DNA from: Alphaproteobacteria bacterium
GTDB taxonomy: Bacteria > Pseudomonadota > Alphaproteobacteria > Micropepsales > Micropepsaceae
DNA length: 64,000 bases
Direction of reading: 5' to 3'
Assembly (NCBI GenBank): GCA_019247845.1
Contig: JAFBAL010000054.1
Span: forward strand, 62,001-126,000
Position 1 is the first letter of the stretch; each line of letters begins with the position of its first letter. This document shows positions 19,334 through 47,242 of the stretch, one piece after another. The notes beneath the pieces are model-generated. The model had not been told where the DNA came from, ran no database searches, and saw only the letters and a list, made by a program, of their open reading frames with translations. Position numbers and translations under genes: made by a program.

Positions 19334-22300
19334 TCAATCTTCGCCGCTTTCGGAAGAAATCCGCGCCGCGATCCGGGACATTTCGGCGTCCAGAAGGCCG
19401 TCCGAGAGCGGCATCAGGCTCGGCCCCTCGGTCCAGACCAGGGCGCAGGCGATTCGTTTTCCTTTGAAAACCTTGGCCGCCGCGGCGCGGTAGAGCGCCA
19501 TTTGCGTTTTATAGAGACGCGCCAGCTCGGCCTCGCTGGCCGGCGGCGGGCGGTTGGTCTTGTAGTCGACGATCAACACCTCGTTTTCTGTGATTGCCAG
19601 CCGGTCGATGCGGCCGTTGACCCGGGCCGTGGGGCCGAGCTCGGGAAGCTTGGCGGTCAGGCCGACCTCGGCGCGGCTTCCGCGCGCAAAGGCCGCCGCA
19701 AAGCGCGGATCGTTCAGTACACGGAGCGTCTCGCGGGCGAGCTGCTCGCCGTCCTCCACGCCGCGCGCCTTCAGAAAGCGCAACGCCATGGCCTCGCGTT
19801 TCTCCTCCGGAATCTCGGGCAGACGTGCCAGCAGCGTGTGCACCAGCTGGCCGCGGCGGAAGCGCGTCGCGGGACGCCTCGACGGCGCGGGCTCGTCCTC
19901 GCCGCTGGCTTCGGAGGGTTGGATCATGCGCGGGTCTGCGCGCTCCTTGGCCACCGGACGGTCGAGCCACGGCTTCAAGGTCAGCGGCGGCGCCTCGAAC
20001 GGCAGGCGCGGCTCGGCCGCTTCGTCTGTCAAATCGCCCAGCACGCGCACCGTCTCGCCGTCGCGCTCGACCTGCGTGCCGACGGCCTGGGCGGCGCGGG
20101 CGCAGAGCGCGTACCACGAGCCTTCCCTGGTGCCGCGCTTGTTCTCGAACCCCGCGACATAGAGCCGGTCTTTGGCGCGGGTGAGCGCGACATAGAGCAG
20201 GCGGCGATGCTCCTTCAGCGTCTCTTCGGATGCCTCGGTCTTGGCGCGCTTGACGGCATCGGGCGCGATGTCGTCGGCGACGGGGAACAGCGCGGCGTCG
20301 CCGCTATAGAGCAGATGGCCCTTCTTGCCCGGCGGCTCGGGCAGGGTGGTGGTATCGGCCAGGATGACGATCTCGGCCTCAAGCCCCTTGGCGCCGTGCA
20401 CGGTCATCACGCGCACCTCGTTGCGGCCGCGCTCCATGTCGCGCTTGACCTCGGCGCCGCCGCGCTCGACCCAATGCAGGAAACCTTCCAGCGACGGCGT
20501 GTTCTGGCTCTCATGCGCCAGCGCGTGCGACAGGAACTCGTCGATCGCGTCACCCGCCTCGTGGCCGAGCCGCGCCAGCAGCTTCATGCGCATGCCGCGC
20601 GGGCCCAGCGCATGGGCGTAGAACTCGAACGGCGGCATATAGTCCGCGCGCCCGCGCATATCGGCCAGAAAGTCGTGGCTCGCGCCGCCTTGGCGCGTGA
20701 GCGCGCTCCACAGCCGGCCTTCGCGGCCATGCGCGAGCTCGAACAACTCCTCCTCGCTCATGCCGATCATCGGCGAGCGCAGGAGCGCCGCGAGATTCAG
20801 GTCGTCCTCCGGCAGCAGCACGAAGCGGCCGAGCGCGATCAGGTCCATCACCGCGATCTGCTCGGTCAAGCGGATGCGGTCGGCGCCCGCCACCGCGATG
20901 CCGCGTTCCTTCAGGCGGCGGATCACCTCGCTGCCGAAGGGCTCGCGCCGCGGCAGCAGGATCATGATGTCGCCCGGCGCGATGGCCTCGTCGCGGCCGG
21001 GAAGGCGCGTGCTGCCGTCGGTCCAGCGCTTGATCTTGTCGGCGATCTTGGTCGCGAGCCGCACCACGGGGCTGGTGCGCGACTCCACGTCGACGGGACG
21101 CCAGACGTCCGGCTCGGGCGCTTCGGACGGTTTGATCGGCGGCCACACCTCGACGCGGCCCTTTGCGGACTCGCGCAGCGGCGTGTGATGGATAGGCTCG
21201 TTCTGCGAGGTCAGACCGGCGCTGGCCTCGGGCGTGGAGAAGACCTCATCGACGAAGCGCAATATCTCGGGCGCCGAGCGCCGCGAGGTTTGCAGCCGCT
21301 CGTCGGCGAAGTCGTGACGCGCAGCGTCCGCGCGGGCCTTGAAATAGACGCGGTTGACGTCGAACTGCTTCGGCTCCGCGCCCTGGAAGCTGAAGATCGA
21401 TTGCTTCTCGTCGCCGACCGCGAAGACGGTGCGCGTGCCTTCGTGGCTTCCGGCGCCGGCGAAGAACTCCTCGGTCAGCTTGCGCACGATGGCCCATTGC
21501 TCGGGGCTGGTGTCCTGCGCTTCGTCGATCAATATGTGATCGAGCCCGCCGTCGAGCTTGAACAGCACCCACTGCGCCGCGTCGCCGCGTTCCAGCAGCT
21601 TCAGCGTCTCGGCGATGAGGTCGTCGTAGTCGAGCACGCCGCGCGCGCGCTTCATGCTGGCATAGATGTCGCGCACCGCGTCGGCGACGATGAGCATCGC
21701 TTCGGCCAGGGCTGCGGCCTGCGCGGCGCGATGGCATTGCTCGGCGGAGAGGAACTCGCTGCAGAAACCTTCGAGCGCGGCGAGCAGGTCGGGCCGCGCC
21801 TTGGCCAGCGCGGCGGTGGCAAGGCGCGCGCGACGCTCGCCGCTCTGGGTCAGCACGACGTCGCGGAACAGCGCGAACCGCGAAAGCGCATCGCTCGCGG
21901 CGAGAGCGTCGGCGAGCTCCTGTCCGCGCTCGATGTCGGTCTTGCTTCCCGTGGCGAGCCAGGCCGCGATCTCGGCGAGCGGCATCGTCTCGGCAAGCAC
22001 GACGAAGCGTTCGGCGACGCCGCGCGGCGTGTCGGTGGCCGCCGCGCCATGCGCCACGCGCAGCCGCCCGGTCAACGCATCCGCGTGGCCGAAGAAGCGG
22101 TCGAGCTTGCGCCGGTCGGTGCTCAGCGCGGCGTCGAGCAACTGCTGCATGCGGCCTTCGCTGGTCTGGGTGACGAGATGGGCGACTGCTGCCGCCAGCG
22201 CCGCGTCGCCGGTGCCGGCGCGCTCCAGCACGCGCGCACGCGCTTCGGCCAAAAGGTCGCGCGCGGTGCGGTCGTCGAGCACCCGGAACGACGGCGGCAC

Positions 22301-22735
22301 GCCCGCCTCGATGGGAAAGCGCGCCAGCAGGTTCTGGCAGAAGGCGTGGATTGTCTGGATCTTCAAGCCGCCCGGCGTCTCTAGCGCCTGCGCGAACAGG
22401 CGCCGCGCCTGGGCAAGGTCGCTTGACGTGCTGGCGGTCGCTCCGACCTCGGCGATCTTCTGCTTGAGCTCGGTATCGGGAAGCATCGCCCATTGGCCGA
22501 GCTGCCGGAACAGCCGGTCCTGCATCTCGGCCGCCGCGGCCTTCGTATAGGTGAGGCAGAGGATGCGCTCGGGCCTCGCCTCGGCGAACAACAGCCGAGT
22601 CACCCGATTGGCCAAGGTGTGCGTCTTGCCTGCGCCGGCATTGGCCGCCACCCAGGCAGAGCGGTCCGGGTCGGCCGCGCGAAGAGACGGGTCGTGGATT
22701 TGCGATGGCGGATTGCGCACGGACGGGTCGCTCAT
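19334..22735 (-). CDS. addA: Double-strand break repair helicase AddA
   Basis: The product is 1133 aa. It is the UvrD-like helicase-nuclease subunit of AddAB, which resects double-strand breaks for RecA loading. Walker A is WVAANAGAGKTHTLANRV. Walker B/motif II is HILIDEAQDTSPEQW, followed by VGDEKQSIFSFQGA. Motifs V/VI are VMTVHGAKGLEAEIVILAD and RLLYVALTRAKDRLYV. The RecB-type nuclease motif LIVDYKTNRPP lies near the C-terminus. The ATG at 22735 (MSDPSVRNPP) is chosen because it gives an ATGA overlap with addB. Confidence 0.95.
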   Translation of the reverse strand: MSDPSVRNPPSQIHDPSLRAADPDRSAWVAANAGAGKTHTLANRVTRLLFAEARPERILCLTYTKAAAAEMQDRLFRQLGQWAMLPDTELKQKIAEVGATASTSSDLAQARRLFAQALETPGGLKIQTIHAFCQNLLARFPIEAGVPPSFRVLDDRTARDLLAEARARVLERAGTGDAALAAAVAHLVTQTSEGRMQQLLDAALSTDRRKLDRFFGHADALTGRLRVAHGAAATDTPRGVAERFVVLAETMPLAEIAAWLATGSKTDIERGQELADALAASDALSRFALFRDVVLTQSGERRARLATAALAKARPDLLAALEGFCSEFLSAEQCHRAAQAAALAEAMLIVADAVRDIYASMKRARGVLDYDDLIAETLKLLERGDAAQWVLFKLDGGLDHILIDEAQDTSPEQWAIVRKLTEEFFAGAGSHEGTRTVFAVGDEKQSIFSFQGAEPKQFDVNRVYFKARADAARHDFADERLQTSRRSAPEILRFVDEVFSTPEASAGLTSQNEPIHHTPLRESAKGRVEVWPPIKPSEAPEPDVWRPVDVESRTSPVVRLATKIADKIKRWTDGSTRLPGRDEAIAPGDIMILLPRREPFGSEVIRRLKERGIAVAGADRIRLTEQIAVMDLIALGRFVLLPEDDLNLAALLRSPMIGMSEEELFELAHGREGRLWSALTRQGGASHDFLADMRGRADYMPPFEFYAHALGPRGMRMKLLARLGHEAGDAIDEFLSHALAHESQNTPSLEGFLHWVERGGAEVKRDMERGRNEVRVMTVHGAKGLEAEIVILADTTTLPEPPGKKGHLLYSGDAALFPVADDIAPDAVKRAKTEASEETLKEHRRLLYVALTRAKDRLYVAGFENKRGTREGSWYALCARAAQAVGTQVERDGETVRVLGDLTDEAAEPRLPFEAPPLTLKPWLDRPVAKERADPRMIQPSEASGEDEPAPSRRPATRFRRGQLVHTLLARLPEIPEEKREAMALRFLKARGVEDGEQLARETLRVLNDPRFAAAFARGSRAEVGLTAKLPELGPTARVNGRIDRLAITENEVLIVDYKTNRPPPASEAELARLYKTQMALYRAAAAKVFKGKRIACALVWTEGPSLMPLSDGLLDAEMSRIAARISSESGED

Positions 22736-25626
22736 TCGTCCGCCTCGTTCCAGCCGCCGAGCGACCATTCGCGCACGCGCGCCAGGTGATCGTAGTCGCC
22801 CGCTAGGTCGGCGCGATAGGGCTGCACGCGCGAATGATAGGGCGTGCTCGCATCGTCGAAGAGCGCGATGCGCTGCGCCAGCCGCGCTTTCGCCTCGGCC
22901 GCGAGCGCATGCGCGTCCACCTTCACCTGGCGAAGCTCGCCGGGCTTGGCGCCGCCGGCGAAGCGGATATAGACGAGCTGCGAGGCCTCGCGCGGCGCCA
23001 CGCCTTCGAAGCCGCCGGCCTCCAGCATCGCCGCTTCCAGCGGCAGCTGCGGGGTGAGCAGCTCCTTGACCTGTTTGTCGGAGGGCGGCGCGCCGGTCTT
23101 GTAGTCGAGGATCGCCGCGGTCCCGTCACGCAGTTCGTCGATGCGGTCGGCGCGGCCGCGCAACGTGAAAGTGCCGCCGGAAGACGCAAACGCCAGCTGG
23201 CCGCCGATCTCCAGATGCGCGCGTGCAATGCCGGCGCGGCGCTCACGCTCCTTGGTCACGAACCAGCGCGCGGCATTCAGGAAGCGCGGCCGCCACAAGG
23301 CCAAGGTCGCGCTCGGCAGGCCGGCGAACAATTCGTCGGCGATCTCGACCAGCCGCAGCTCCGCGCCGGGTGGGATCAGTTGCGGGAATTCGCGGATGAA
23401 ATTCTCCAGCGCCTTGTGCACCACGCTGCCGCGCTCGAGCGGCCCGATCTCGGCATCGAGCGGATCGAGCGGCCTCAAGCCCAGCACGTGCTTGGCATAG
23501 ATCGCGTAAGGATCGCGCAGCCAGGTCTCGATCTCGGTGACGGTCAGGCTGCGCGGACGTGCGGCGACGGGCGGCGTGGGGGCAGGGCGCGCGATGCGCG
23601 GCGCGGGCACCGGCTCCTCCCACGCCTTGTGCAGCGCGATGTAATCCGTCGGCGCGTCGAGCTTGTGGCCGAGGCCCAGGCCGCCGGTCAGCTGCATCAG
23701 CCTTTGCAGCCAGCGCGAGGCGATGGTCGGCGCGCCGTCCGCCTTCATCGCCCGCGTCAGCAGCACTTCGTGCCCCGAGGCCAAGGTTGCGAAGTCGTGG
23801 GCGCTAAGGCCGATGGCGCGCTCCGGCGCTTCCAGGCCGATGGCCTTGCGCATCGGGCGCGAGAACCAGGGGTCGGCGGCGGCTCCGCCGGGCCAGCTGC
23901 CTTCGTTGAGGCTGCCCAGGATCACCAGGTCGAAATGCAGCAGGCGCGCTTCCTGGGGGCCCAGGATCGCAAGCCTGGGATGCTTGCCGAACGGCGGACG
24001 CACCGCGACCGCGCCCATCATCTCGCGGAACAGGGGCGCATAGGCGCTGGCCTCGACGGATGGAAGCGCGGCCGCGTCGCGCGCCAGCTCTTGCACGAAG
24101 CCGTGCGCGGTATTGCCTGCCTCGCCGCGCCACAGCTCTGGCGCCAAGGTCTCGGCGGCTTCGAGATGCAGCGCGAGCGTCCGTGCGATATCGATGGCGG
24201 ACGCAGCGAGCGTCTCTTCCAGCGGCCGCAGCACGCACGCGATTTGCTCGAACCACGGCGCCTTCGCCACGATGCCGTCGAGGCCCGCATCGGGCCTGGG
24301 CCCGCGCAACGCGATGTCGAGCGCGCGCGCATCGGAACGGAACGCCGCCGCGTCGCCCATCGTCGCCAGCGGATGCTTGAGCAGCGCCAGCAGCGGTGCC
24401 GGCGCGAAGCGCGCATCGGCGGCCTCGGCAAGCAGCGAGAGGAACGTGCCGGGCGGGGTGTGCGACAATGGCCGCCCGGCAGAATCGTCGATGGCGATCT
24501 GCCAGCGCTCCAACTCGGACGCGACGCGACGCGCCAGCCCGCGGTCGGGCGTGATCAACGCCGCGGTCTTGTCGGCGGTCTCCAGCGCCTCGCGCAGCGC
24601 GAGCGCGATCACCGCGGCTTCCTCGGCCGGATCGGCAGCGTGGACGAGCGAAAGTCCGTTCAGCCCTTCGGAAATCTCGCCGCCGCCGTGCTCTGCCAGC
24701 GCGCGCCAGGCGTCGGTGGTCGGCGCGGGACGCAAGGTCTCGCGCAGCAGCTGCTCGCGCGCCAGCATCGGCTCGCCGTCCCAGTCGCGCACCGCGGCGC
24801 GCGCCGCACCGATGCGCCCCAGCAGCTGCTTCATGCCGTATTGCGGATGACCTTCGTCGAGATCGTCCCAGCTTTTCTCGTCCAGCGCCTTGTCGAGGCC
24901 GGGCAACACGACCATGCCACGCGGCAGCCGCGCGATGACCTTGAGCAGCTCGCCGGTCGCGGGGATGCTGCCCGTCGAGCCCGCCGCAATGACCGGGCCG
25001 TCCGGCGGATGGGCTTCGAGGCGCTTGGCCAGCGTGCGCAACAGCGCGTTGCGCCGCGCGGCAGGATCGACCGCGCCTTCCTTTTCCAGAAGCTCCGGCC
25101 ATGCGACGCGCAGCACCTCGAGCAGGCCGAGCACGTCGTCCCAATGCGCGGCGAGGGCTTTGGGCGCGAGCGTTTCGAGCGTTTCGAGCTTGCAGCCTTG
25201 CGTCGCGAACTCGTCCATCAGCCGAGCCAGCCCGCCGGCGAGCGACGCGGCCTGTGCGAAGCCCAAGGTTCCGAGCCGCCGCGCTTCGTCCCAGCGGCGC
25301 ACCAGCGTCGCGAGCAACAGGCGCCGCCGCATCGGCGCGATGGCGGGCTTGGCGTCGAGGTCGTCGTCGCCGAACAGCAGCTCGTCCTCGTCGACGTCGC
25401 CCAGCGGCTTGAAATCGGGCAGCAGCGCAGCCCCGCCCAGGACGCGCGCGAAGCCGTCGGCGAAGGTGCGTGCCGCGCGCCGCGTCGGCAGGTAGATGGT
25501 GGCGGCCGCCAGCGCCAGCGGATCGCGCTCGGCGCCCAGCTCGGCGATCATGCCTCGCGCCAGCGTTTCGGCGAAAGGCAGGCTTGCCGCGATGGTGACG
25601 ACGTTCGGGCGGCGCTCAGGCGACAA
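22732..25626 (-). CDS. addB: Double-strand break repair protein AddB
   Basis: The product is 964 aa. Partner of AddA. It has an inactivated helicase-like fold with no Walker A at the N-terminus (begins VVTIAASLPFAETLARGM, then IYLPTRRAARTFADGF), as in alphaproteobacterial AddB. A C-terminal RecB-family nuclease domain carries GRADRIDELRDGTAAILDYKTGAPPSDKQVKELLTPQLPLEA. The end overlaps addA by 4 nt; the start overlaps the murU gene by 11 nt. Confidence 0.93.
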   Translation of the reverse strand: MSPERRPNVVTIAASLPFAETLARGMIAELGAERDPLALAAATIYLPTRRAARTFADGFARVLGGAALLPDFKPLGDVDEDELLFGDDDLDAKPAIAPMRRRLLLATLVRRWDEARRLGTLGFAQAASLAGGLARLMDEFATQGCKLETLETLAPKALAAHWDDVLGLLEVLRVAWPELLEKEGAVDPAARRNALLRTLAKRLEAHPPDGPVIAAGSTGSIPATGELLKVIARLPRGMVVLPGLDKALDEKSWDDLDEGHPQYGMKQLLGRIGAARAAVRDWDGEPMLAREQLLRETLRPAPTTDAWRALAEHGGGEISEGLNGLSLVHAADPAEEAAVIALALREALETADKTAALITPDRGLARRVASELERWQIAIDDSAGRPLSHTPPGTFLSLLAEAADARFAPAPLLALLKHPLATMGDAAAFRSDARALDIALRGPRPDAGLDGIVAKAPWFEQIACVLRPLEETLAASAIDIARTLALHLEAAETLAPELWRGEAGNTAHGFVQELARDAAALPSVEASAYAPLFREMMGAVAVRPPFGKHPRLAILGPQEARLLHFDLVILGSLNEGSWPGGAAADPWFSRPMRKAIGLEAPERAIGLSAHDFATLASGHEVLLTRAMKADGAPTIASRWLQRLMQLTGGLGLGHKLDAPTDYIALHKAWEEPVPAPRIARPAPTPPVAARPRSLTVTEIETWLRDPYAIYAKHVLGLRPLDPLDAEIGPLERGSVVHKALENFIREFPQLIPPGAELRLVEIADELFAGLPSATLALWRPRFLNAARWFVTKERERRAGIARAHLEIGGQLAFASSGGTFTLRGRADRIDELRDGTAAILDYKTGAPPSDKQVKELLTPQLPLEAAMLEAGGFEGVAPREASQLVYIRFAGGAKPGELRQVKVDAHALAAEAKARLAQRIALFDDASTPYHSRVQPYRADLAGDYDHLARVREWSLGGWNEADE

Positions 25627-26335
25627 GGTCGCTCAGGTAGTCGTCGGCGTCGCGCACGGCCTCGGGCGTGCCGACATGCATCCACACGCCGTCGAGGCGG
25701 ATGCCGTAGAGCCGCCCCTTCTCGATCGCCACGTCCCACAGCTTGTTCATCGAGAACGAGGCGCCGGGCGCGGCGTCGAAGATGCGCGGATGGACGATCT
25801 GCACGCCCGGATAGGCGAAGGGCGAGACGCGCCGCGCCGCGACGCGGCTCAAATGGCCGTCCGAGTCCATGTTGAAGTCGCCGGTGCCCTCGAAGCCCAG
25901 CGCCGTCACCATCGAGGCCATGAGCAGCAGCGCGTCCATCCGCTCGCCGTCCCAGCGCTCCTTCATGCGCTCCAGTGCGCGGCCCAGCCCCTCGACCCAC
26001 AGCGAGTCCGAATTGTGCACGAAGAACGGCTCGCCTTCGAAGTTGGGCAAGGCTTTGAGGATGCCGCCGCCGGTGCCCAGGATCTCGTCGTTCTCTTCGG
26101 AGATGCGGATATCGACGTCCTTGCGCCTGGCGAGATGCGCTTTGAGCATGTCGGCCTTGTAATGCGCGTTGACGACGATCATCGTCACGCCGGCCGCGAC
26201 GAGGCGGTCGATGGCGTGGTCGATCAGCGCCTTGCCGCGCACCTCGACCAGCGGCTTCGGCCTGTCGTCGGTCAAGGGCCGCATGCGCGTGCCCAGGCCC
26301 GCCGCCATCACCATCGCACGCGTGATCGTAGTCAA
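25616..26335 (-). CDS. murU: Nucleotidyltransferase, N-acetylmuramate-1-phosphate uridylyltransferase (MurU-like)
   Basis: The product is 239 aa. The nucleotidyltransferase signature is AMVMAAGLGTRMRPLTDDRPKPLVEVRGKALIDHAIDRL, followed by PFFVHNSDSLWVEG for the metal-binding region. Together with the adjacent AmgK-like kinase this is the MurU/AmgK pair that converts recycled MurNAc to UDP-MurNAc, bypassing de novo synthesis. That pathway conferring fosfomycin tolerance is established in Pseudomonas; here it is assigned by homology and adjacency. It overlaps the kinase by 4 nt and addB by 11 nt. Confidence 0.82.
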   Translation of the reverse strand: MTTITRAMVMAAGLGTRMRPLTDDRPKPLVEVRGKALIDHAIDRLVAAGVTMIVVNAHYKADMLKAHLARRKDVDIRISEENDEILGTGGGILKALPNFEGEPFFVHNSDSLWVEGLGRALERMKERWDGERMDALLLMASMVTALGFEGTGDFNMDSDGHLSRVAARRVSPFAYPGVQIVHPRIFDAAPGASFSMNKLWDVAIEKGRLYGIRLDGVWMHVGTPEAVRDADDYLSDLVA

Positions 26336-27435
26336 GCCGTCGCTCCATCGATTGCCCCGCGAGCCTCGCGCGGGATCGTCCTGTCATACCACGATTTGAG
26401 CCGCGCCAACGCCGGATGGTCGAGGTCGCGGTTCAAATAGCCCCAGACGCGGGGCAGGTAGCTCAGATAGCGCGGCTTGCCGTCACGTTTGTGAAGCCGC
26501 GCGAAGATGCCCGCGATCTTGGCATTGCGCTGCGCCGCCATGACCGCCATCTGGGCGCGGTAGGCGTCCTCGTCGCGGCCGGCGGCGTCGAGGTAGTGAC
26601 GGGTGGTGGCTTCGGCGATCTCCGGCGCCACGTCGCGGCGCGCATCCTCGATCAGCGAGATCAGGTCGTAGGAGCGCGCCCCCGCCACGGCGTCCTGGAA
26701 GTCGATCAGGCCGACGCGGGCGACGCCGTCGCGCTTGGGCAGCCAGATCAGGTTCTGAGCATGATAGTCGCGGTGCACGAAGACCGGCGCCGCGTCGCGC
26801 GCCCGGGCGATGGCCTCGCGCCACAGCGCGCGATGCTCGTCGACTTCGTCCGGCCGCGTCTCGCGCTTGAGCGCCAGCGGCAGGAACCACTGCGTCATCA
26901 GTTCGATCTCGGCCAGCAGCGCGGTCTCGTCATAGGCATAAAGCGGACGGTCGCCCATCGCGTCCGGCGCGCCACCGTCATGCAGGCGCGCCAGCACCTC
27001 GGCGGCGGCTTCATAGAGCTCGCGCTCGTCGCCGCCCGCACGCAAGACCTCGGCATAAAGGTCGTCGCCCAGGTCTTCGATCAGCACAAGGCCGCGCCCG
27101 CAGTCGGCGGCATAGATCTCCGGCGCCGAGAGGCCGAGCCCGCGCAGGTAGTTCGACACCGCGATGAAGCGCCCGCAATCGGCGCCGGCCAGCCGCGCCA
27201 CCGCGTTGTAGCCCAGCGCGTGACGCTCCGCCGGCGTCGCGTCGGCGGGCGCCGCCGGCGCCTCGGCCGACTGCGGCTGGTCCATCAGCATCGCGGTCCT
27301 GCCGTTCAGATGCACCCGCGCATAGGAGCGCGTGGAGGCGTCGCCGGGGCGCGGCACGATCTCGCCCCCGCGCCAGCCGCTTGCGTCGACGAATTCGCGG
27401 CGTTGCCGGTTGCGTTCAAATTCGCGCTCAGACAT
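26332..27435 (-). CDS. amgK: AmgK-like N-acetylmuramate/N-acetylglucosamine kinase
   Basis: The product is 367 aa, an aminoglycoside-phosphotransferase fold. The N-lobe has GGEIVPRPGDASTRSYARV, LMDQPQSAE and GLGLSAPEIYAADCGRGLVLIEDLG. The catalytic loop is VFVHRDYHAQNLIWLP and the metal-binding DFG-equivalent is VGLIDFQDAVAGARSYDLISLIEDARRD. Its position between tsaE and murU is the standard alphaproteobacterial order and supports the recycling kinase assignment over drug resistance. Overlaps tsaE by 8 nt. Confidence 0.82.
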   Translation of the reverse strand: MSEREFERNRQRREFVDASGWRGGEIVPRPGDASTRSYARVHLNGRTAMLMDQPQSAEAPAAPADATPAERHALGYNAVARLAGADCGRFIAVSNYLRGLGLSAPEIYAADCGRGLVLIEDLGDDLYAEVLRAGGDERELYEAAAEVLARLHDGGAPDAMGDRPLYAYDETALLAEIELMTQWFLPLALKRETRPDEVDEHRALWREAIARARDAAPVFVHRDYHAQNLIWLPKRDGVARVGLIDFQDAVAGARSYDLISLIEDARRDVAPEIAEATTRHYLDAAGRDEDAYRAQMAVMAAQRNAKIAGIFARLHKRDGKPRYLSYLPRVWGYLNRDLDHPALARLKSWYDRTIPREARGAIDGATA

Positions 27436-27889
27436 GTGCCGCCCACTTCTTGGGGCCCGACAGCTTCGCGCGGCGCGCGGTCGCTGCGGTGATGGTCAGC
27501 GCCACGTGCAGCGCGTCCGCGGGCAGGTGCGCGCCGGCGCGCTCCGGCCATTCGATCAGCGCCGCGCCTTCGTCCAACGCGTCGTCGAGGCCGAGCTCGG
27601 CGATCTCGGCTTCGCTCGCCACGCGATAGAGATCGAAGTGCCGCACGGTGAGCGTGGGCGTGTCGTATTGCTGGACCAGGGTGAAGGTCGGGCTCGGCAC
27701 CTCTTCGGCGACGCCCAGCGCATGCAGGATGGCGCGGGCCAAGGTGGTCTTGCCGGCGCCCAGGTCGCCTTCCAGCGCCACCGCGTCGCCCACGGCCAGG
27801 CCGCGCGCGATCGCCGCGCCCAGGGCCTCGGTTTCCGCCCCGTCAGCCAGCGCGACCTCCCGTTCAAAACCTTGAGAATCCTTCATCAT
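27428..27889 (-). CDS. tsaE: tRNA threonylcarbamoyladenosine biosynthesis ATPase TsaE
   Basis: The product is 153 aa. ATPase of the TsaB-TsaD-TsaE complex that makes t6A37 in tRNA. The Walker A is LEGDLGAGKTTLARAIL. SPTFTLVQQYD and the HFDLYRVAS motif follow, then a conserved LIEWPERAG. Two adjacent ATGs (27889 and 27886) are possible starts. First gene of the tsaE-amgK-murU-addB-addA-trxA run, all with overlaps or short gaps. Confidence 0.92.
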   Translation of the reverse strand: MMKDSQGFEREVALADGAETEALGAAIARGLAVGDAVALEGDLGAGKTTLARAILHALGVAEEVPSPTFTLVQQYDTPTLTVRHFDLYRVASEAEIAELGLDDALDEGAALIEWPERAGAHLPADALHVALTITAATARRAKLSGPKKWAAHV

Positions 27890-27903: not shown

Positions 27904-29517
<1,614 letters not shown>

Positions 29518-29519
29518 CG

Positions 29520-29834
29520 GTGGCGGATCGGCCCGTCAGATGGACCGCTGTGGCCGCAGCCTATGCGGGCTGGAACGCGCTGGTCTTCCCGATGCTGATC
29601 CCGCTGATGAACGGCGGATGGTCGGACTACAACCATTTCCTCGCGCTCTGCGCCACGCTCGCGCCGCTGTCGCTCTTCGCCTTCGTCATAGCGGTGAAGT
29701 ATCTGCCGCCAGTCCAAAACCTGTTCCTGCGCGACGGTCACTCCGTCGTTGAGATTCTTCCCGTCTTGAATACGCTGATCATCGTCGCAGGCGTGTTGCT
29801 CGCGGCCTGCATCTGCGCGCTGATCACGGTTTAG
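29520..29834 (+). CDS. Small three-helix membrane protein, hypothetical
   Basis: The product is about 104 aa from GTG 29520 (an in-frame TTG at 29514 overlaps the ferredoxin stop). Three hydrophobic stretches: AVAAAYAGWNALVFPMLIPLM, FLALCATLAPLSLFAFVIAV and ILPVLNTLIIVAGVLLAACICALI. No family recognised. Tight spacing suggests co-transcription with the reductase and ferredoxin. Confidence 0.5.
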   Translation: MADRPVRWTAVAAAYAGWNALVFPMLIPLMNGGWSDYNHFLALCATLAPLSLFAFVIAVKYLPPVQNLFLRDGHSVVEILPVLNTLIIVAGVLLAACICALITV

Positions 29835-29844
29835 GAGGTGTCCC

Positions 29845-30627
29845 ATGCATGACGATTTCGGCGGATTGAAGCGCGACCTTTCTCTCATCGCTCGGCGCCG
29901 TGCGTTGGGGCTGTTCGGTGCGGGCGCCGGAGAGCTGCTGCTGCGGCCCGGTCAGCTGCTCGCCGCGGGGACCTGCGTCGCCGACGCGCCGGAGACCGCC
30001 GGGCCCTATCCGGCGGACGGCACCAACCATGCGGGCGGCGAGACCTCGGACGTGCTCACCCAATCGGGCGTGGTGCGCCGCGACATCCGCTACAGCTTCC
30101 TGTCGACGACCACCAAGGCGAAGGGCGTGCCCGTCAAGCTGAAGCTCAAGCTCGTCAATTCGAAGGATGCCTGCGCGCCGCTGGCGGGCTATGCGGTCTA
30201 TGCCTGGCAATGCGACCGCGATGCGAAGTATTCGCTCTACACGCTTCCCGGCGAGAGCTACCTGCGTGGCGTGCAGGTGACCGACGAGAAGGGGCACCTG
30301 ACCTTCACGACGATCTTCCCGGCCTGTTATCCCGGGCGCTATCCGCACATCCACCTGGAGATCTTCTCGAGCCTGGCGGCGGCAACCACCGGCCGCAACG
30401 CGATCCTGACCACGCAGCTCGCGCTTCCGGCGGACGCGTGCAACGAGGTCTACGACAACGCCCGCGGATATCAGTCGTCGATCGCGAACTTCAAGAACAT
30501 CTCGCTGCAGCAGGACAGCGTCTTCGGCGACGACACGCCCGCGCAGCTCGCCGCGATGACGCCCAAGATGAAGGGCAGCGTGGCCGACGGCTACTCGGCA
30601 GTGGCAACCGTCGGCGTGGCTGTCTGA
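29845..30627 (+). CDS. Intradiol ring-cleavage dioxygenase-like protein
   Basis: The product is 260 aa. The N-terminus has a twin-arginine-like stretch (IARRRALGLFGAGAG), so Tat export is possible but the motif is not canonical. The core shows APETAGPYPADG, CAPLAGYAVYAWQCDRDAKYSLY and YLRGVQVTDEKGHLTFTTIFPACYPGRYPHIHLEIF. These match the catechol/protocatechuate dioxygenase beta-sandwich. The Tyr and the two His (residues 168 and 170) are plausible iron ligands. The group closest in layout is the exported hypothetical dioxygenases; an aromatic substrate is inferred. A GGAGG Shine-Dalgarno lies before the ATG. Confidence 0.75.
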   Translation: MHDDFGGLKRDLSLIARRRALGLFGAGAGELLLRPGQLLAAGTCVADAPETAGPYPADGTNHAGGETSDVLTQSGVVRRDIRYSFLSTTTKAKGVPVKLKLKLVNSKDACAPLAGYAVYAWQCDRDAKYSLYTLPGESYLRGVQVTDEKGHLTFTTIFPACYPGRYPHIHLEIFSSLAAATTGRNAILTTQLALPADACNEVYDNARGYQSSIANFKNISLQQDSVFGDDTPAQLAAMTPKMKGSVADGYSAVATVGVAV

Positions 30628-30631
30628 TAGA

Positions 30632-31219
30632 TCAGCTCCCCTCGCGCTGCACGTCGCCGCCGCCCTGCACGGCCTCATTGACCTGCGGGTTGCCGCGATA
30701 GCTGATGTCGCCGCCGCCCGAGACCGCGGCATTGAGCGCGCGCGTCGCTGTCAGGTGGATGTCGCCGCCGCCGTTCACCGCGGCGTCGACCTCGGCCGCC
30801 TTGATCGGGCGCATGTCGATGTCGCCGCCGCCGTTGACGGCGAGCGCGAGACGGTCGCGGCCGGGGAAGCTGCCCTGCGCCACGATCTCGCCGCCGCCGT
30901 CGATGGCCGCGGCATCGAGGTCGGGCGACACGATCTCGATCTCGAGGTCGTAGCTGTTGGGGCAATGGTCGTTGCAGGCATCAATCACCAGCTTGCGGCC
31001 CTCGCGGATTTTGAAGCTGGTGTATTGCGTGCTGCCTTTGACGAGGGTGACGCTCTGGGTGGCGCCGTGCTTGACGACGACATGGCCGCCGCCGCGCAGC
31101 TCGACCTGGGTGAAATGCCCGACCGAGATATTCTCGGTGGCGAGCGCGGGGCCCGCGAACATGGCGGCGGTGGCGACGGCGGATGCGAGACGGATGGCAA
31201 GACGCGGGGCAAGATGCAT
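30632..31219 (-). CDS. DUF2807 (auto-transporter adhesin head GIN) secreted protein
   Basis: The product is 195 aa. The signal peptide ends AMFAGPALA. The mature part begins ENISVGHFTQVELRGGGHVVVKHG, the usual DUF2807 start. It then shows repeated right-handed beta-helix turns with a Gly-Gly-Gly-Asp-Ile signature (AIDGGGEI, AVNGGGDI, AVNGGGDI, AVSGGGDI, AVQGGGDV). Start at 31219 is supported by an AGGAGG Shine-Dalgarno nine nt upstream. Convergent with the dioxygenase gene. Confidence 0.8.
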   Translation of the reverse strand: MHLAPRLAIRLASAVATAAMFAGPALATENISVGHFTQVELRGGGHVVVKHGATQSVTLVKGSTQYTSFKIREGRKLVIDACNDHCPNSYDLEIEIVSPDLDAAAIDGGGEIVAQGSFPGRDRLALAVNGGGDIDMRPIKAAEVDAAVNGGGDIHLTATRALNAAVSGGGDISYRGNPQVNEAVQGGGDVQREGS

Positions 31220-31324
31220 TGGGGTTCCTCCTGGCTGCTGCCAGGGAAGATAGGTGCCGTCCACTAGTTTTACCGCATTGCGCGTCCGGAGCCCCGCCAT
31301 GCGGGCGGCGTGTGGCTGGAAAAA

Positions 31325-33706
31325 TCAGGCCAGTTTGCGATCCGCGTCCTGAAGGCGCCGGGGCAGATGGCAGCGCACGATCGTTCCATTGTCCGACTCG
31401 ATCTCGACCCAGCCGTCATGCAGCTCGACGAAGCGGTTCACGAGCGCCAGCCCCAGCCCGGCGCCGGCGCGCTGGCCCGAGCGCGCCTTGGCGGCGAAGC
31501 GCTCGAAGACGTTTGCCTTCACCTCGGGCGCGATGCCGGGGCCGGTATCGGCGACGGCGATCTGCACGTCCTCGCCCTCGATGCGGCCGGACAGCGTGAT
31601 CGTGCCGCCGCTGGGCGTGAACTTGCAGGCATTGGAGAGCAGGTTGAACACGACCTGGCGCAGCCGCCGGTCGTCGGCGCGGAACTCGCCCGGTTGCGCC
31701 TCGACGACGAGCGCGAGCCCCGCTTTCGCCGCCATGTCGCCGGCGAGCCCGGCGACGTCCTCGAGCAGCGCCTTCATGTCGATGCGCGTCAGCTCGAGGC
31801 GCAGCGCGCCGGATTCGATCAGCGACAGGTCGAGGATGTCGCTGATCAGCTGCTTGAGCGTATTGGCGCCGGCCACGATGTCGCCGACATATTCCGTCTG
31901 CCGCTTGTTCAGCTCGCCCGGGATGCCGCTCGCGAGGTGTTCGCCGAACCCCAGGATCGTGTTCAGCGGCGTGCGCAGCTCGTAGGAGACGTGCTTGATG
32001 AAGTCGGACTTGAGGCGGTCCGCGGCCTCCAGTGCGTCGTTGCGGTCGCGCAGCGCGCTTTCGATGCGGAAGCGGTCGGTGACGTCGACGAAGGTGACGA
32101 GGATGGCGCCGTCGGGCAGCGCCGACAGGGTCAGCGACAGGATGGTGCGGTCGTTGCGCTCGATCTCGCCCAGGTCGCGGCGGTCGCCCGAGCCCGAGAC
32201 AATGGCCTGGATCAATCCCTCCCACACCTCGGTATCGCCGAACTTCTCGACGCAGGCCGCCGCGATGGCGCGTACATGCGGCTCGCCGGCGAGGTCCTTG
32301 GGCGCAAGCTCCCACAGCCGCGCGAAGCAGGCATTGTGCAGCTTGAGCCGCCCGTCGGGGCCGAACACCGCCACACCCTCGCTCAAGGTGTCCAGCGTCG
32401 CCGACTGCACCTTGATCAGCGTGTTGTAGGAGCTCTCGAGCGTGATGCGCGCGGTCACGTCCTCGTAGAGGAACGTCAGCCCGCCGAAGGGGTGCGGCTG
32501 GGCCACGACGCGCAAGGTCTTGCCGCCCGGAACGTGCCACAGCTCCTCGGGCAGGTATTCCTGCGCCGCGCCGTAGAGCGACAACCGCTCGCGCTTCCAG
32601 GCCTGATAGTCGCGATGCTCCTGCAGCTTTCGCATCTCGCGCAGCCGGTCGAGGATCTCGCCGTCGCTGGGATGGGTGTCGAGCCAGGTCTCCGACAGGC
32701 CCCAGAGCTGCGCATAGGCGCGGTTGTAGAAGGAAAGCTTCTGGTCGCGGCCGAAGATCGCGACCGCGGTGGCGAGGCGATCGAGCGTGTCGGAATGCGC
32801 GTCCAGATGCTGCTGCAGCTTGGCATCGGCCTGGACATTCTCGGTGACGTCGACGGCACTGCCCACGATGGCGCCGTCGTCCATCGGCTGGTGCGTGAAG
32901 GCGAGCGCGCGGCGCTGGCCGCCGATGACGGCGAAGCGGCGCGTCTCCTGCACCTGACGGCTGTTGCGCGCCATGGCGGCGAGGTCGGGCTCGGAACGCT
33001 CCAGCGTCGGCTCCGCGCCCTTGGCGTCGGCGAAGGCGGTGTTGTTCCAGACCAGCTGCAGCGCGCGGTCGCGCACCCAGACCGGGATCGGCAGCGCGTC
33101 GAGCACGGCGCGGTAGTCGAGCGATTGGCCCTTCACCGCGCGCTCGGGCTCGAGCCACACCGCCGCCATGCCGCCGACGGCGCGGCCGCGGAAATGGATC
33201 GGATGGCCGTTCCTGTCATGCGCCGAGAGCGCGAAGGATTCGGCGCGCTCGCTCAAGCCGTCGAGCGCGCGGCTCAGCGCCAGCGCGTCGGGGCCGGCGA
33301 GGCAGGAATCCACCACCGCCTCGGCGCCGCCGTAGGAATAGGGGCCCGAGCCGTCGCGGCCCCACACCACCAGCGCCTCCTTGCCGGCGCCGAGCAGCGC
33401 GTCGCGCTCGCCCACCGCGGCGCGGGTGCGCGCGCCCGCGAGCTTGAGCGCGCGCTTGAGGCGAAAGCTGATCTTCTGCTCGGCCACGGCCCACAGGCCC
33501 GCGGCGATGGCCAGTGCGACCGCGCCCGCGGTCACCGCCGCCAGCACCATGTCGCGCTCGCCGAGGACGGGGAGGAGGCCGGAAGCGGCCGGCACGGCGG
33601 CGGATGCCGAGGTCACGGACGCGGCCGACAGGGCGGCAAAGGTCGCGGCCGCCAGCGTCAGCGCCCCCGTCAATCCCTTCCTGGCAACCCCCGATTCCCG
33701 TCGCAT
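31325..33706 (-). CDS. divL: DivL-type PAS sensor kinase with Tyr in place of the phospho-acceptor His
   Basis: The product is 793 aa. An N-terminal hydrophobic anchor (residues ~10-75) precedes several PAS-like segments (SLDYRAVLDALPIPVWVRDRALQLVWNN; DRLATAVAIFGRDQKLSFYNRAYAQLW; LDTLSEGVAVFGPDGRLKLHNACFARLW). The DHp helix reads FIKHVSYELRTPLNTI, with Tyr575 (TAC, complement of 31982-31984) where kinases have His. N box NLLSNACKFTPSGG, G1 DTGPGIAPE and G2 GAGLGLALVNRF are intact. Tyr-containing HVSYELRTPL is the hallmark of DivL, which in Caulobacter controls CckA/CtrA and cell division. Its place in the ahcY...tsaE neighbourhood agrees. Confidence 0.85.
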   Translation of the reverse strand: MRRESGVARKGLTGALTLAAATFAALSAASVTSASAAVPAASGLLPVLGERDMVLAAVTAGAVALAIAAGLWAVAEQKISFRLKRALKLAGARTRAAVGERDALLGAGKEALVVWGRDGSGPYSYGGAEAVVDSCLAGPDALALSRALDGLSERAESFALSAHDRNGHPIHFRGRAVGGMAAVWLEPERAVKGQSLDYRAVLDALPIPVWVRDRALQLVWNNTAFADAKGAEPTLERSEPDLAAMARNSRQVQETRRFAVIGGQRRALAFTHQPMDDGAIVGSAVDVTENVQADAKLQQHLDAHSDTLDRLATAVAIFGRDQKLSFYNRAYAQLWGLSETWLDTHPSDGEILDRLREMRKLQEHRDYQAWKRERLSLYGAAQEYLPEELWHVPGGKTLRVVAQPHPFGGLTFLYEDVTARITLESSYNTLIKVQSATLDTLSEGVAVFGPDGRLKLHNACFARLWELAPKDLAGEPHVRAIAAACVEKFGDTEVWEGLIQAIVSGSGDRRDLGEIERNDRTILSLTLSALPDGAILVTFVDVTDRFRIESALRDRNDALEAADRLKSDFIKHVSYELRTPLNTILGFGEHLASGIPGELNKRQTEYVGDIVAGANTLKQLISDILDLSLIESGALRLELTRIDMKALLEDVAGLAGDMAAKAGLALVVEAQPGEFRADDRRLRQVVFNLLSNACKFTPSGGTITLSGRIEGEDVQIAVADTGPGIAPEVKANVFERFAAKARSGQRAGAGLGLALVNRFVELHDGWVEIESDNGTIVRCHLPRRLQDADRKLA

Positions 33707-33755
33707 GTTCCGCGAATCACTGTGGAATCAATACGGTACCCACATTGGGTGAGTC
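33693..33755. promoter_or_regulatory. Cluster of four GANTC (CcrM-type) sites at the divL start
   Basis: GATTC 33693-33697, GAATC 33714-33718, GAATC 33725-33729 and GAGTC 33751-33755, spanning the divL start codon and its upstream region. GANTC is the CcrM methylation target in alphaproteobacteria and marks GcrA/CcrM-controlled promoters. Four in 63 nt is dense for GC-rich DNA. Confidence 0.55.
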
Positions 33756-33771
33756 CGCATAGGGATTGTGG

Positions 33772-33786
33772 TTAACAAATCGTAAA
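33772..33786. promoter_or_regulatory. CtrA-box-like site TTAA-N7-TAAA
   Basis: One mismatch from the CtrA consensus TTAA-N7-TTAA, 66 nt upstream of divL and 83 nt upstream of the divergent GloVer gene. Both AT-rich halves stand out against the GC-rich background. A 9-nt direct repeat TAGGGATTG (33760-33768 and 33811-33819) surrounds it. Confidence 0.4.
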
Positions 33787-35597: not shown

Positions 35598-37004
35598 TCA
35601 GTAGCGGTAGTGATCCGGCTTGAACGGGCCGGCCTCGGGCACCGAGATGTAGTCCGCCTGCTTCTTGCTGAGCTTGGTCAGCTTCACGCCGATCTTGTCG
35701 AGATGCAGGCGCGCGACCTTCTCGTCCAGCGCCTTGGGCAGGGTATAGACCTTCTTCTGGTACTTGCCCTGGTCCTTGAACAGCTCGATCTGCGCCAAGG
35801 TCTGGTTCGTGAACGACGAGCTCATCACGAAGCTCGGATGGCCCATGGCGTTGCCGAGGTTCACCAGGCGCCCTTCGGAGAGAAGGATGAGGCGCTTGCC
35901 GTCGGCGAACTCGATCTCGTCGACCTGCGGCTTGATGTTGTTCCACTTGAGGTTCTTGAGCGCGGCGACCTGGATCTCGCTGTCGAAGTGGCCGATGTTG
36001 CAGACGATGGCGCGGTCCTTCATCGCGCGCATATGCTCGATCGTGATGACATCCACGTTGCCGGTGGCGGTGACGAAGATGTCGGCGCGGGGAGCGGCGT
36101 CCTCCATCGTCACGACCTCGTAGCCTTCCATCGCGGCCTGGAGCGCGCAGATCGGATCGATCTCGCTCACCAGCACGCGGCAGCCGGCCTGGCGCAGCGA
36201 AGCGGCCGAGCCCTTGCCGACGTCGCCGAAGCCCGCGACCATCGCGACCTTGCCGGCCATCATCACGTCGGTGCCGCGGCGGATGCCGTCGACGAGCGAC
36301 TCGCGGCAGCCGTAGAGGTTGTCGAACTTCGACTTGGTGACGCTGTCGTTGACGTTGATCGCGGGGAAGAGGAGCTTGCCCTCCTTCTCCATGATGTAGA
36401 GGCGGTGCACGCCAGTCGTCGTCTCTTCCGACACGCCCTTGATGTTGGCCGCGACCTGGGCGAACCAGCCCTTGGGCTTCTCGGTGAGCAGGCGTTTGAT
36501 CAGCGCGTAGAAGACCTCTTCCTCCTCGTTCTCGGGCTTGTCGAGGAAGGCCGTGTCGCCCTTCTCCGCGCGCAGGCCGTGATGGACGAGCATCGTGGCG
36601 TCGCCGCCGTCGTCCAGGATCATGTTGGGATAGCCGCCGCCGTGCCAGTCGAAGAGCTTGGCGGTGTAGTCCCAATAGTCCTTCAGGCTCTCGCCCTTGA
36701 TCGCGAAGACCGGCGTGCCGCCGGCGGCGATGGCTGCCGCGGCGTGATCCTGCGTCGAATAGATGTTGCACGACACCCAGCGCACGTCGGCGCCCAGGGC
36801 CTTCAAGGTCTCGATCAACACCGCGGTCTGGATCGTCATGTGCAGCGAGCCCGCGATGCGCGCGCCCTTCAGCGGTTGCGACGCGCCGTATTCCTCGCGC
36901 GTGGCCATCAGGCCGGGCATCTCGGTCTCGGCGATGGAGATCTCCTTGCGGCCGAAATCGGCGAGCTTGATGTCGGCAACGGCATAATCGGGGGCGGCGG
37001 CCAT
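35598..37004 (-). CDS. ahcY: S-adenosylhomocysteinase
   Basis: The product is 468 aa. Hydrolyses SAH to homocysteine and adenosine, clearing product inhibition of methyltransferases. Features: NAD-binding [17 protein letters not shown], substrate region [28 protein letters not shown], the lysine region [24 protein letters not shown], and the C-terminal KPDHYRY that reaches the partner subunit. ATG at 37004 ([22 protein letters not shown]) is chosen over a longer start. A candidate promoter and a palindromic operator lie directly upstream. Confidence 0.96.
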
Positions 37005-37037
37005 GGGCGGAATCCTTCGATGGAGCAAAGCGCGCGC

Positions 37038-45128: not shown

Positions 45129-45617
45129 TCATTTGGATTGGGCCCCATCGCGGAACAGATTGCGCTCGAAGGCGGCGACGGCGAGCGCGATCTTCTCGGG
45201 CGCCGAGCTTTCGAAGGCGGCGAGTCTTAACAGAGGCACGGGCACCGGCAAGTCCCAGGGCGCTTTGTAATGTTCTTCACGCGGCAGCCGCGGAACCTTC
45301 TGGTCGAGCTGCACGGCGAGCGCGACCCGCGCCTTGTGCGCATGCGGCAGCGCCACGATGCCGACGCCGCGCGCCTCGATCAGCCCGCGCAGATTTGCCG
45401 GCGGCTTGGCCACGAGATGCCCGCCTTGCTCGCTCAACTCGGTGCGGTCGTCGCTGACCAGGATGGCGCCGCGCGAGATCAGCCGCAGCGCGAGGTCGGA
45501 CTTGCCCGAGCCGCTCTTGCCGAGCAGCAGCACGCCCGCGTCGCGCGAGGCGCCGAAAGTGCCGCCGGCGTGCGCGAGCACGACGCAGGTCGCGTGGACA
45601 TTGATTGTGTTCGGCAT
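45129..45617 (-). CDS. hprK: HPr kinase/phosphorylase, short alphaproteobacterial form
   Basis: The product is 162 aa, about half the Gram-positive protein, consisting of the C-terminal kinase domain only, as usual in alphaproteobacteria. Begins NVHATCVVL; Walker A is VLLLGKSGSGKSDLALRLI, followed by AILVSDDRTEL. It phosphorylates or dephosphorylates HPr on Ser. Its start overlaps the chvG stop by one nt. Confidence 0.92.
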   Translation of the reverse strand: MPNTINVHATCVVLAHAGGTFGASRDAGVLLLGKSGSGKSDLALRLISRGAILVSDDRTELSEQGGHLVAKPPANLRGLIEARGVGIVALPHAHKARVALAVQLDQKVPRLPREEHYKAPWDLPVPVPLLRLAAFESSAPEKIALAVAAFERNLFRDGAQSK

Positions 45618-47236
45618 CAGACGCTCTTCATCAAAGGCAGCACGACGATGAAACGCGCGCCCCCCCCGTCGCGGTTCTCGGCCCAGATGCGCCCGCCGGT
45701 GTTGAGCACGATCTGGCGGGCGATGGAGAGGCCGAGGCCCGAGTTCTTGCCGAAGCCGTGCTCCTGCGGCCGCTCGGTGTAGAAGCGTTCGAAGATGCTT
45801 TCGAGGTTCTCCTCCGGGATGCCGGGCCCGCGGTCCTCGACCGCGATCCGCGCGAAGCCCGTGCCCTCCGGCCGTGCCGTGATCGTGATCGGCATGCCGT
45901 CGGGGCTGAACGAGACCGCGTTGTCGATGAGGTTGCGGATCACCTGGCCCAGGCGCTCGTCGCGGCCCATGACCTTCGCGTCCCTGGGCAGATCGATCTT
46001 CAGCTCCATCGGCACGCGATGCGACAGGTCGGTGAAGTTGTAGACCTCGACGATGGTCTCGAGCAGATGCGTCAGGTCGATGGGCGCGTTGGACTCGCGG
46101 CTGAGCTCGGCATCGAGGCGCGAGGCGTCGGAGATGTCGGTGATCAGCCGGTCGATGCGCCGCACGTCGTTCTTGACGATGCCCATCAGCCGCTCGCGCG
46201 CGACGTCGTCCTTGGAGCGGGCGAGCATCTCGACCGCGCTCTTGAGCGAGGTCAGCGGGTTCTTGATCTCGTGCGCGACGTCGGCGGCGAAGCTCTCGAT
46301 GGCGTCGATGCGGTCGTAGAGCGCGCGCGTCATCGCCGAGAAGCTCTGCGCCAGGTCGCCGATCTCGTCGCCGCGCTCGGCCATGGTGGGGATGGTCTCG
46401 CGGCCCGAGCGGCCGCTGCGCACGCGGTCGGCGGCGGCGGCCAGCGTCAGGACCGGCCGCGCGATGAAGCGTGACAGGAACAGCGACGAGGCCAACATCA
46501 CGCCGATGGCGATGACGAAGACCTCGAGCAGCGTGGCACGCTCTTCCCGCAGCACGTCGTCGATGTCGCCGCCCTCGGTCGAGACCATCAAGACGCCGTA
46601 GATCGCCTTGAAGCGCTGCACGGGCGCCGCGACCGACAGCACCAGCTTGTTCTGCTGGTTCACGCGCTCGGCGCTCGCCACGTCGCCGGCCATCGCGGCG
46701 TTGACCTCTTTATAGACGCGTCCGTTGTCGCCGCCCTCGAAATAGGGATCGAGCTTGGAGAAGGGGCGCACGCCGGTGACGCTGTCATAGACCCGGTTCC
46801 AGAAGTCCTGGACCTGGCTCCAGGTGTCGATCGCGGGCAGGTCCTGGGTCTGCACCAGATTGCGCGCGAGCAGGTCGCGCGTGTCGATGGCGAGGGTACC
46901 GTTGGTCATGAAGAGCCGGCCGCGCAGCTTGGTCGGCGCGATGAGCTGGCGCAGCAAAGGCTCGGCCTGGCGCAGGTTCAGCGTGTGGGTGTCGGGGTCG
47001 GTGGCGTATTCGGCGAGGGTGGAGGCGACGATGCGCGCCTGGTTCTCGATGCCTTCCAGCCGCTCGTCGACGAGGCCGACGCGCGAACGCTCCACGGCGA
47101 CGACGCCGCCGATCAGGCCGAGCAGCACCACCACGTTCACGACGACGATGCGCCGGGTCAGCGCCGAGTAGCGCGCGCGCCGCTTCGGCTGTGCCGGCAT
47201 CACGGGGGTGAGGGCGCCTCGCTCGTCCGCAGCCAC
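45617..47236 (-). CDS. chvG: Two-component sensor histidine kinase ChvG
   Basis: The product is 539 aa. Two membrane helices (about 30-48 and 238-256) flank a periplasmic domain of about 190 residues; then HAMP (FIARPVLTLAAAADRVRSG). DHp reads FAADVAHEIKNPLTSL with His322. N box VIRNLIDNAVSFSPDG, G1 VEDRGPGIPEE, G2 GLGLSIARQI. ChvG senses acid or envelope stress together with ExoR in rhizobia; exoR is not in the window. It lies six nt after chvI and translationally abuts hprK, the classic order. Confidence 0.92.
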   Translation of the reverse strand: MAADERGALTPVMPAQPKRRARYSALTRRIVVVNVVVLLGLIGGVVAVERSRVGLVDERLEGIENQARIVASTLAEYATDPDTHTLNLRQAEPLLRQLIAPTKLRGRLFMTNGTLAIDTRDLLARNLVQTQDLPAIDTWSQVQDFWNRVYDSVTGVRPFSKLDPYFEGGDNGRVYKEVNAAMAGDVASAERVNQQNKLVLSVAAPVQRFKAIYGVLMVSTEGGDIDDVLREERATLLEVFVIAIGVMLASSLFLSRFIARPVLTLAAAADRVRSGRSGRETIPTMAERGDEIGDLAQSFSAMTRALYDRIDAIESFAADVAHEIKNPLTSLKSAVEMLARSKDDVARERLMGIVKNDVRRIDRLITDISDASRLDAELSRESNAPIDLTHLLETIVEVYNFTDLSHRVPMELKIDLPRDAKVMGRDERLGQVIRNLIDNAVSFSPDGMPITITARPEGTGFARIAVEDRGPGIPEENLESIFERFYTERPQEHGFGKNSGLGLSIARQIVLNTGGRIWAENRDGGGARFIVVLPLMKSV

Positions 47237-47242
47237 GATCGC

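What the first reader, a model, noticed from the sequence alone, without database searches (positions are those of the whole stretch)
31325..33706. DivL orthologue: Tyr replaces the histidine of the kinase H box
Seen: the DHp helix reads FIKHVSYELRTPLN, with TAC at the phospho-acceptor codon (31984-31982 on minus), while N, G1 and G2 boxes are intact. Known: Caulobacter DivL has exactly this substitution and works as an allosteric regulator of CckA, not as a classic kinase. So the organism probably uses the DivK-DivL-CckA-CtrA circuit.
Basis: partly seen in the sequence, partly recalled or inferred. Interest (0 to 1): 0.65.

Follow-up and report, generated by a model that had tools for sequence, protein, structure and literature searches.

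The report
Ordinary DivL cell-cycle pseudokinase
The gene encodes the alphaproteobacterial version of DivL, a disabled histidine kinase that helps control the cell cycle; its tyrosine in place of histidine is what almost all DivL proteins have, so the find is real but ordinary, though relatives carry an interesting kinase-less copy.

Summary
The minus-strand ORF 31325-33706 encodes a 793-aa membrane-anchored, four-PAS protein with DHp and CA domains. Codon 575 (TAC, 31984-31982) puts Tyr where kinases have the phospho-acceptor His, and the N, G1, F and G2 boxes are intact. Tree, structure match (4q20) and synteny (ahcY-divL-tsaE-amgK) make it a DivL orthologue. The host genome (a 92%-complete MAG) encodes CckA, ChpT, CtrA, DivK, CpdR, PleD, GcrA and DivJ-like kinases. 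A CtrA-box-like site precedes divL and is conserved in the genus.

It is not surprising. Tyr is the state in 68 of 78 DivLs sampled across the class and 24 of 30 in the genus, and was already described as conserved. One limit: three of the four tested Caulobacter DivK-docking residues differ here, matching the class consensus, so DivK~P binding is inferred.

Two things seen in relatives are less ordinary. One group in the genus has Phe plus further H-box decay (SFLFRDPL). About a quarter to a third of the genus also carries a kinase-less, PAS-only DivL paralogue, usually right behind a FixK/FNR-type gene; none was found in the window's own genome.

The parts
31325..33706 (-). divL ORF, 793 aa: N-terminal membrane helix, four PAS domains, DHp, CA
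31982..31984 (-). TAC codon for Tyr575 (= Caulobacter Tyr550), at the phospho-acceptor position
31961..32002 (-). H-box region FIKHVSYELRTPLN (residues 569-582)
33389..33559 (-). long N-terminal helix, residues 50-106, predicted membrane anchor (first part) running into a coiled stalk
   Evidence: model; membrane role inferred from hydrophobicity
33146..33376 (-). PAS-like fold 1 (residues 111-187)
32849..33082 (-). PAS-like fold 2 (residues 209-286)
32441..32785 (-). PAS fold 3 (PAS_7, residues 308-422)
32072..32395 (-). PAS fold 4 (PAS_4/PAS_8, residues 438-545)
31808..32011 (-). DHp domain (HisKA, residues 566-633)
31355..31675 (-). CA domain (HATPase_c, residues 678-784), ATP-binding boxes intact
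33771..33786 (-). CtrA-box-like site TTTACGATTTGTTAAC (8 of 9 to TTAA-N7-TTAAC), 65-80 nt before the ATG, conserved in most promoters of the genus
35598..37028 (-). ahcY, upstream syntenic neighbour
27428..27880 (-). tsaE, downstream syntenic neighbour
26332..27435 (-). APH-family kinase (amgK-like), syntenic
25616..26335 (-). nucleotidyltransferase (murU-like), next gene of the block
   Evidence: the name murU is from general knowledge
19334..25626 (-). addB-like and addA-like nuclease/helicase genes following the block
   Evidence: the names addB/addA are from general knowledge

Best explanation
This is the DivL orthologue of an alphaproteobacterium, probably Micropepsaceae (Rhizomicrobium or close). 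It is a membrane-anchored pseudo-histidine kinase. The four PAS domains tune a DHp-CA core that cannot autophosphorylate because its acceptor is Tyr. The core still docks the response regulator DivK~P. In the unbound state DivL favours the kinase mode of CckA, which feeds ChpT and then CtrA and CpdR; DivK~P binding favours the phosphatase mode. Shown here: orthology, domain anatomy, the Tyr and its generality, presence of the other pathway genes, and a conserved CtrA-box-like site before divL. Inferred from Caulobacter work: loss of kinase activity, DivK~P sensing, CckA activation, and CtrA control of divL.
For: Best solved-structure match is DivL 4q20 by sequence (E 1.8e-47) and by fold (Z 22.7, rmsd 4.3, 220 residues aligned, 34% identity). 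DivL group split from 17 own kinases at 99 SH-aLRT. Synteny: tsaE near divL in 60 and ahcY in 48 of 80 named loci. Tyr in 68/78 class and 24/30 genus orthologues. CtrA, DivK, ChpT, CckA type, CpdR, GcrA and DivJ-like kinases in the same genome. CtrA-box-like site: 3 such sites with at most one mismatch in 64 kb against 0.28 expected, one of them here, with a TT[TC]A-N7-TTAAC site in about 25 of 29 genus promoters. Literature: Tyr conserved in alphaproteobacterial DivL, core repurposed as DivK~P sensor, no kinase activity (PMC4211667).
Against: Of four Caulobacter residues whose mutation lowers DivK~P binding (R553, T557, Y562, H579), only R553 is kept. The window has N582, F587 and Y606, and in Caulobacter T557N was among four substitutions that weakened binding 8-15-fold (PMC4211667). 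These are, however, the class-consensus residues and those of ordinary kinases, so Caulobacter is the outlier. The circuit may also be wired differently: in Hyphomonas neptunium DivK is dispensable although DivL is essential (PMC7200025). ChpT and CckA score below NCBIfam's clade-specific cut-offs.
Confidence: 0.93

Rival explanations
1. It is a DivL orthologue by descent, but in this lineage it does not read DivK~P; it passes PAS-sensed or other signals to CckA, with DivK acting elsewhere.
For: Three of four tested Caulobacter docking residues differ. The kinase-less paralogues and the Phe-type DivLs of the same genus show that this lineage tolerates loss of the core in a second copy and decay of the H box. 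DivK is dispensable in H. neptunium (PMC7200025).
Against: DivK is retained and very close to Caulobacter DivK. R553 and its DHp surroundings are conserved class-wide, and the substituted residues are those of the ordinary kinases of the same genome.
Confidence: 0.15
2. The Tyr is an active phospho-acceptor, making this a bacterial tyrosine kinase, as first proposed for Caulobacter DivL in 1999 (reference 17 in PMC4211667).
For: ATP-binding boxes are intact and the Glu after the Tyr is kept.
Against: Caulobacter DivL shows no kinase activity (PMC4211667). Close relatives in the same genus have Phe there, with that Glu replaced by Leu.
Confidence: 0.02
3. It is a PleC/DivJ-type or other histidine kinase that lost its His on its own and resembles DivL by convergence.
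For: NCBIfam gives only generic kinase matches and a weak DivJ match.
Against: The tree puts all 17 own kinases on the other side of a 99% branch; synteny and homology to DivLs over the PAS region agree.
Confidence: 0.01

Closest known systems
Caulobacter crescentus DivL (PDB 4q20; PMC4211667)
   Same: Tyr at the acceptor, PAS array plus DHp-CA, intact ATP boxes, pathway partners in the genome
   Different: Docking residues T557, Y562 and H579 are N, F and Y here
DivL of Rhizobiales such as Rhizobium, Labrenzia and Microvirga (loci L246, L210, L212)
   Same: Tyr; ahcY upstream and tsaE-amgK downstream
   Different: About 35-39% identity overall; several extra genes sit between divL and tsaE in the window
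Short DivL of Rhodobacterales (PMC9430884)
   Same: Same PAS region
   Different: Lacks the pseudokinase core and goes with loss of DivK; the window protein keeps the core and the genome keeps DivK. The kinase-less paralogue in related genomes resembles it but coexists with full-length DivL

Membership tests
DivL pseudo-histidine kinase | Tyr (non-His) at the DHp acceptor position | tested here: met
   Tyr575 aligned with Tyr550
DivL pseudo-histidine kinase | Membrane anchor, multiple PAS domains, DHp and CA with N, G1, F, G2 boxes | tested here: met
   membrane insertion itself inferred
DivL pseudo-histidine kinase | Phylogenetic placement with Caulobacter DivL, apart from the genome's PleC/DivJ-type kinases | tested here: met
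   99 SH-aLRT
DivL pseudo-histidine kinase | Gene neighbourhood shared with other alphaproteobacterial divL loci | tested here: met
   ahcY and tsaE-amgK shared with most named loci
DivL pseudo-histidine kinase | Residues shown to dock DivK~P in Caulobacter (R553, T557, Y562, H579) | tested here: inconclusive
   R kept, the other three differ but match the class consensus (PMC4211667)
DivL pseudo-histidine kinase | No kinase activity; binds DivK~P; modulates CckA | not testable with these tools
   needs biochemistry
DivK-DivL-CckA-ChpT-CtrA circuit | All component genes in the same genome | tested here: met
   CtrA, DivK (66), ChpT (9, 61), CckA type (14, 61), CpdR (61), GcrA (73), DivJ-like (65)
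DivK-DivL-CckA-ChpT-CtrA circuit | CtrA-box-like sequence before a circuit gene | tested here: met
   one-mismatch site before divL, conserved in the genus; CtrA binding itself not shown

The most novel reading that the evidence does not exclude
In this genus the divL gene was duplicated once, on the stem of the genus. One copy kept the pseudokinase core. The other lost DHp-CA, kept anchor and PAS domains, and became linked to a FixK/FNR-type regulator gene, often near FixL/FixJ-type genes. The short copy could be a DivK-blind, oxygen-linked second input to CckA-CtrA, either as a stand-alone PAS activator or as a hetero-partner of full-length DivL. Nothing here shows its function, and it was not found in the window's own genome.
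Probability: 0.3. Interest if true: 0.5.

Novelty: new member of a known kind. Interest (0 to 1): 0.25.

Why it matters
It extends the DivL circuit to a poorly studied alphaproteobacterial lineage and confirms with a wide sample that Tyr is the class-wide norm in DivL. The survey also shows that three of the four tested Caulobacter DivK-docking residues are atypical for DivL, so docking rules drawn from Caulobacter may not carry over. Natural Phe-type DivLs with a decayed H box, and a kinase-less paralogue in the same genus, are natural experiments on which part of DivL does the work.

Tried and rejected
(1) The 821-codon antisense open frame over divL (31310-33775, +) was taken as a by-product of high-GC codon structure, because the minus frame has homologues along nearly its whole length. 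(2) PleC/DivJ or other kinase identity: rejected by the tree. (3) The idea that N582 makes this DivL unable to bind DivK was dropped as a strong claim, since N is the class consensus (58 of 78). (4) A kinase-less paralogue in the window's own genome: none found, nor a close FixK homologue, but the assembly is only 92% complete. (5) Whether Phe-type DivLs are ancestral in the genus is unsettled: the PAS-region tree shows them as early branches, partly with weak support, while the DHp-CA tree without the H box makes them one clade (99/99) with one Tyr-type row outside (Y group as one clade: p-AU 0.051). (6) FNR-box and CtrA-box scans before the FixK-type gene gave only weak, mixed signals. (8) The first two PAS folds rest on the predicted model only; the fold search covered mainly residues 548-786. 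(9) A first attempt at an alignment used wrong coordinates and was redone.

Full report
Observation. Pfam finds PAS folds, HisKA and HATPase_c. An AlphaFold2 model (mean pLDDT 82, pTM 0.39, so domain arrangement is unsure) shows a long N-terminal helix, four PAS-like folds, the two DHp helices and a CA domain.

Identity. By sequence the best solved structure is Caulobacter DivL, 4q20 (E 1.8e-47), and by fold it is again 4q20 (Z 22.7, 220 residues, rmsd 4.3), though other kinases follow closely, as expected for one fold. A tree of the DHp-CA region puts the window protein, 33 DivLs of the class and 4q20 together against 17 other kinases of the same genome (SH-aLRT 99, quick method). Several long branches are present, but the window protein is not one of them. 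Gene order agrees: ahcY upstream, tsaE and an amgK-like gene downstream, then a nucleotidyltransferase and addB/addA-like genes. Of 80 named loci, tsaE lies near divL in 60 and ahcY in 48; some of the rest are cut by contig or flank ends.

How general is the Tyr? In 78 orthologues from outside the genus the residue is Tyr in 68, His in 3, Phe in 2, with V, C, E, G and W once each; the W comes from a broken frame (L175). In 30 genomes of the genus it is Tyr in 24 and Phe in 6 (from loci fetched). The literature already states that the Tyr is conserved in alphaproteobacterial DivL, with Ala in Magnetospirillum magneticum (PMC4211667). The substitution is therefore the rule for DivL.

Pathway. 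The window lies in a 3.9-Mb draft genome, 92% complete. It holds CtrA (425.6 bits to NF045991, cut-off 350), DivK (E 1e-59 to 1m5t) next to a PleD-type protein, ChpT (PF10090 over its cut-off), a CckA-type hybrid kinase (643 bits to the Brucella CckA model, below its strict cut-off), CpdR (over cut-off), GcrA and DivJ-like kinases. A site TTTACGATTTGTTAAC lies 65-80 nt before the divL ATG. It is one mismatch from TTAA-N7-TTAAC, the motif reported for CtrA (PMC7200025); 3 such sites occur in the window against 0.28 expected, and a TT[TC]A-N7-TTAAC site recurs in about 25 of 29 promoters of the genus. The genomes are related, so the recurrence is not fully independent evidence.

Mechanism. From Caulobacter (PMC4211667): DivL has no kinase activity, its core binds DivK~P at the usual regulator-docking surface, and its PAS domains give the preference for DivK~P. 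In the window protein R553 is kept, while T557, Y562 and H579 are N, F and Y. These are the residues of 58, 73 and 75 of 78 class DivLs and of the ordinary kinases of the same genome, so it is Caulobacter that is unusual. The simplest reading is that docking works through the canonical kinase surface, but this is untested.

Relatives. Two side findings came out. First, six DivLs of the genus, plus named ones such as Rhizomicrobium sp. CRAIB_MAG71 (L182), read F[VI]xHASFLFR[DN]PL: Phe at the acceptor, Leu for the following Glu, Asp or Asn for Thr; their ATP boxes are intact. Second, 18 of 69 genomes of the genus hold a near-complete second DivL-like gene of about 530-600 codons that stops right after the last PAS domain (about 22 with fragments). 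These short proteins form one clade (100/99) beside the DivLs of the genus, which points to one duplication on the stem of the genus. In 15 of 19 loci a FixK/FNR-type gene lies directly upstream on the same strand, and FixL/FixJ-type genes are near several. In a 386-genome class sample no genome outside the genus showed a full-length DivL together with a short one, with at most three candidates scored per genome. The window's genome shows neither the short copy nor the FixK-type gene. Kinase-less DivL is known in Rhodobacterales, where DivK is lost (PMC9430884), and two divL homologues have been reported in many Rhizobiales (PMC8116508), so only the combination and the FixK link look new.

Taxon. 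Related named loci include a Rhizomicrobium sp. at 63% identity over most of the protein (lineage), so Micropepsaceae is likely but not proven.

Verdict.

Noticed in passing
L083-L095 and L258-L275 (same-genus genomes): A kinase-less, PAS-only DivL paralogue of about 550 aa coexists with full-length DivL in about a quarter to a third of the genus; single clade, sister to the genus DivLs.
   Followed up: partly
L092:2292-3041, L085:4739-5518, L089:2262-2996 and others: A FixK/FNR-type regulator gene lies directly upstream, same strand, of the kinase-less DivL in 15 of 19 loci; FixL/FixJ-type genes are nearby in several.
   Followed up: partly
L073, L078, L079, L080, L082, L171, L182-L185, L187: A group of DivLs with Phe at the acceptor and a decayed H box (SFLFRDPL) but intact ATP-binding boxes where checked. 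PAS-region and core trees disagree on its place.
   Followed up: partly
L090:901-1581 (-): A CtrA-like response regulator (263 bits to the CtrA model, below its 350 cut-off) close to a kinase-less DivL gene.
   Followed up: no
L098 (same family, other genus): A DivL with HVSYQLIVPL: Tyr kept, but the highly conserved Arg and Thr of the H box are Ile and Val.
   Followed up: no
window 45617-47950 (-): A ChvG/ExoS-like sensor kinase (Stimulus_sens_1, Sensor_TM1) next to a ChvI-like response regulator.
   Followed up: no
window 27934-31300: Several genes (ferredoxin reductase-like and ferredoxin-like on the + strand among them) lie between divL and tsaE, which are neighbours in many other alphaproteobacteria.
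   Followed up: no
L169 and L170 (G099): One class genome carries two full-length Tyr-type DivL copies.
   Followed up: no
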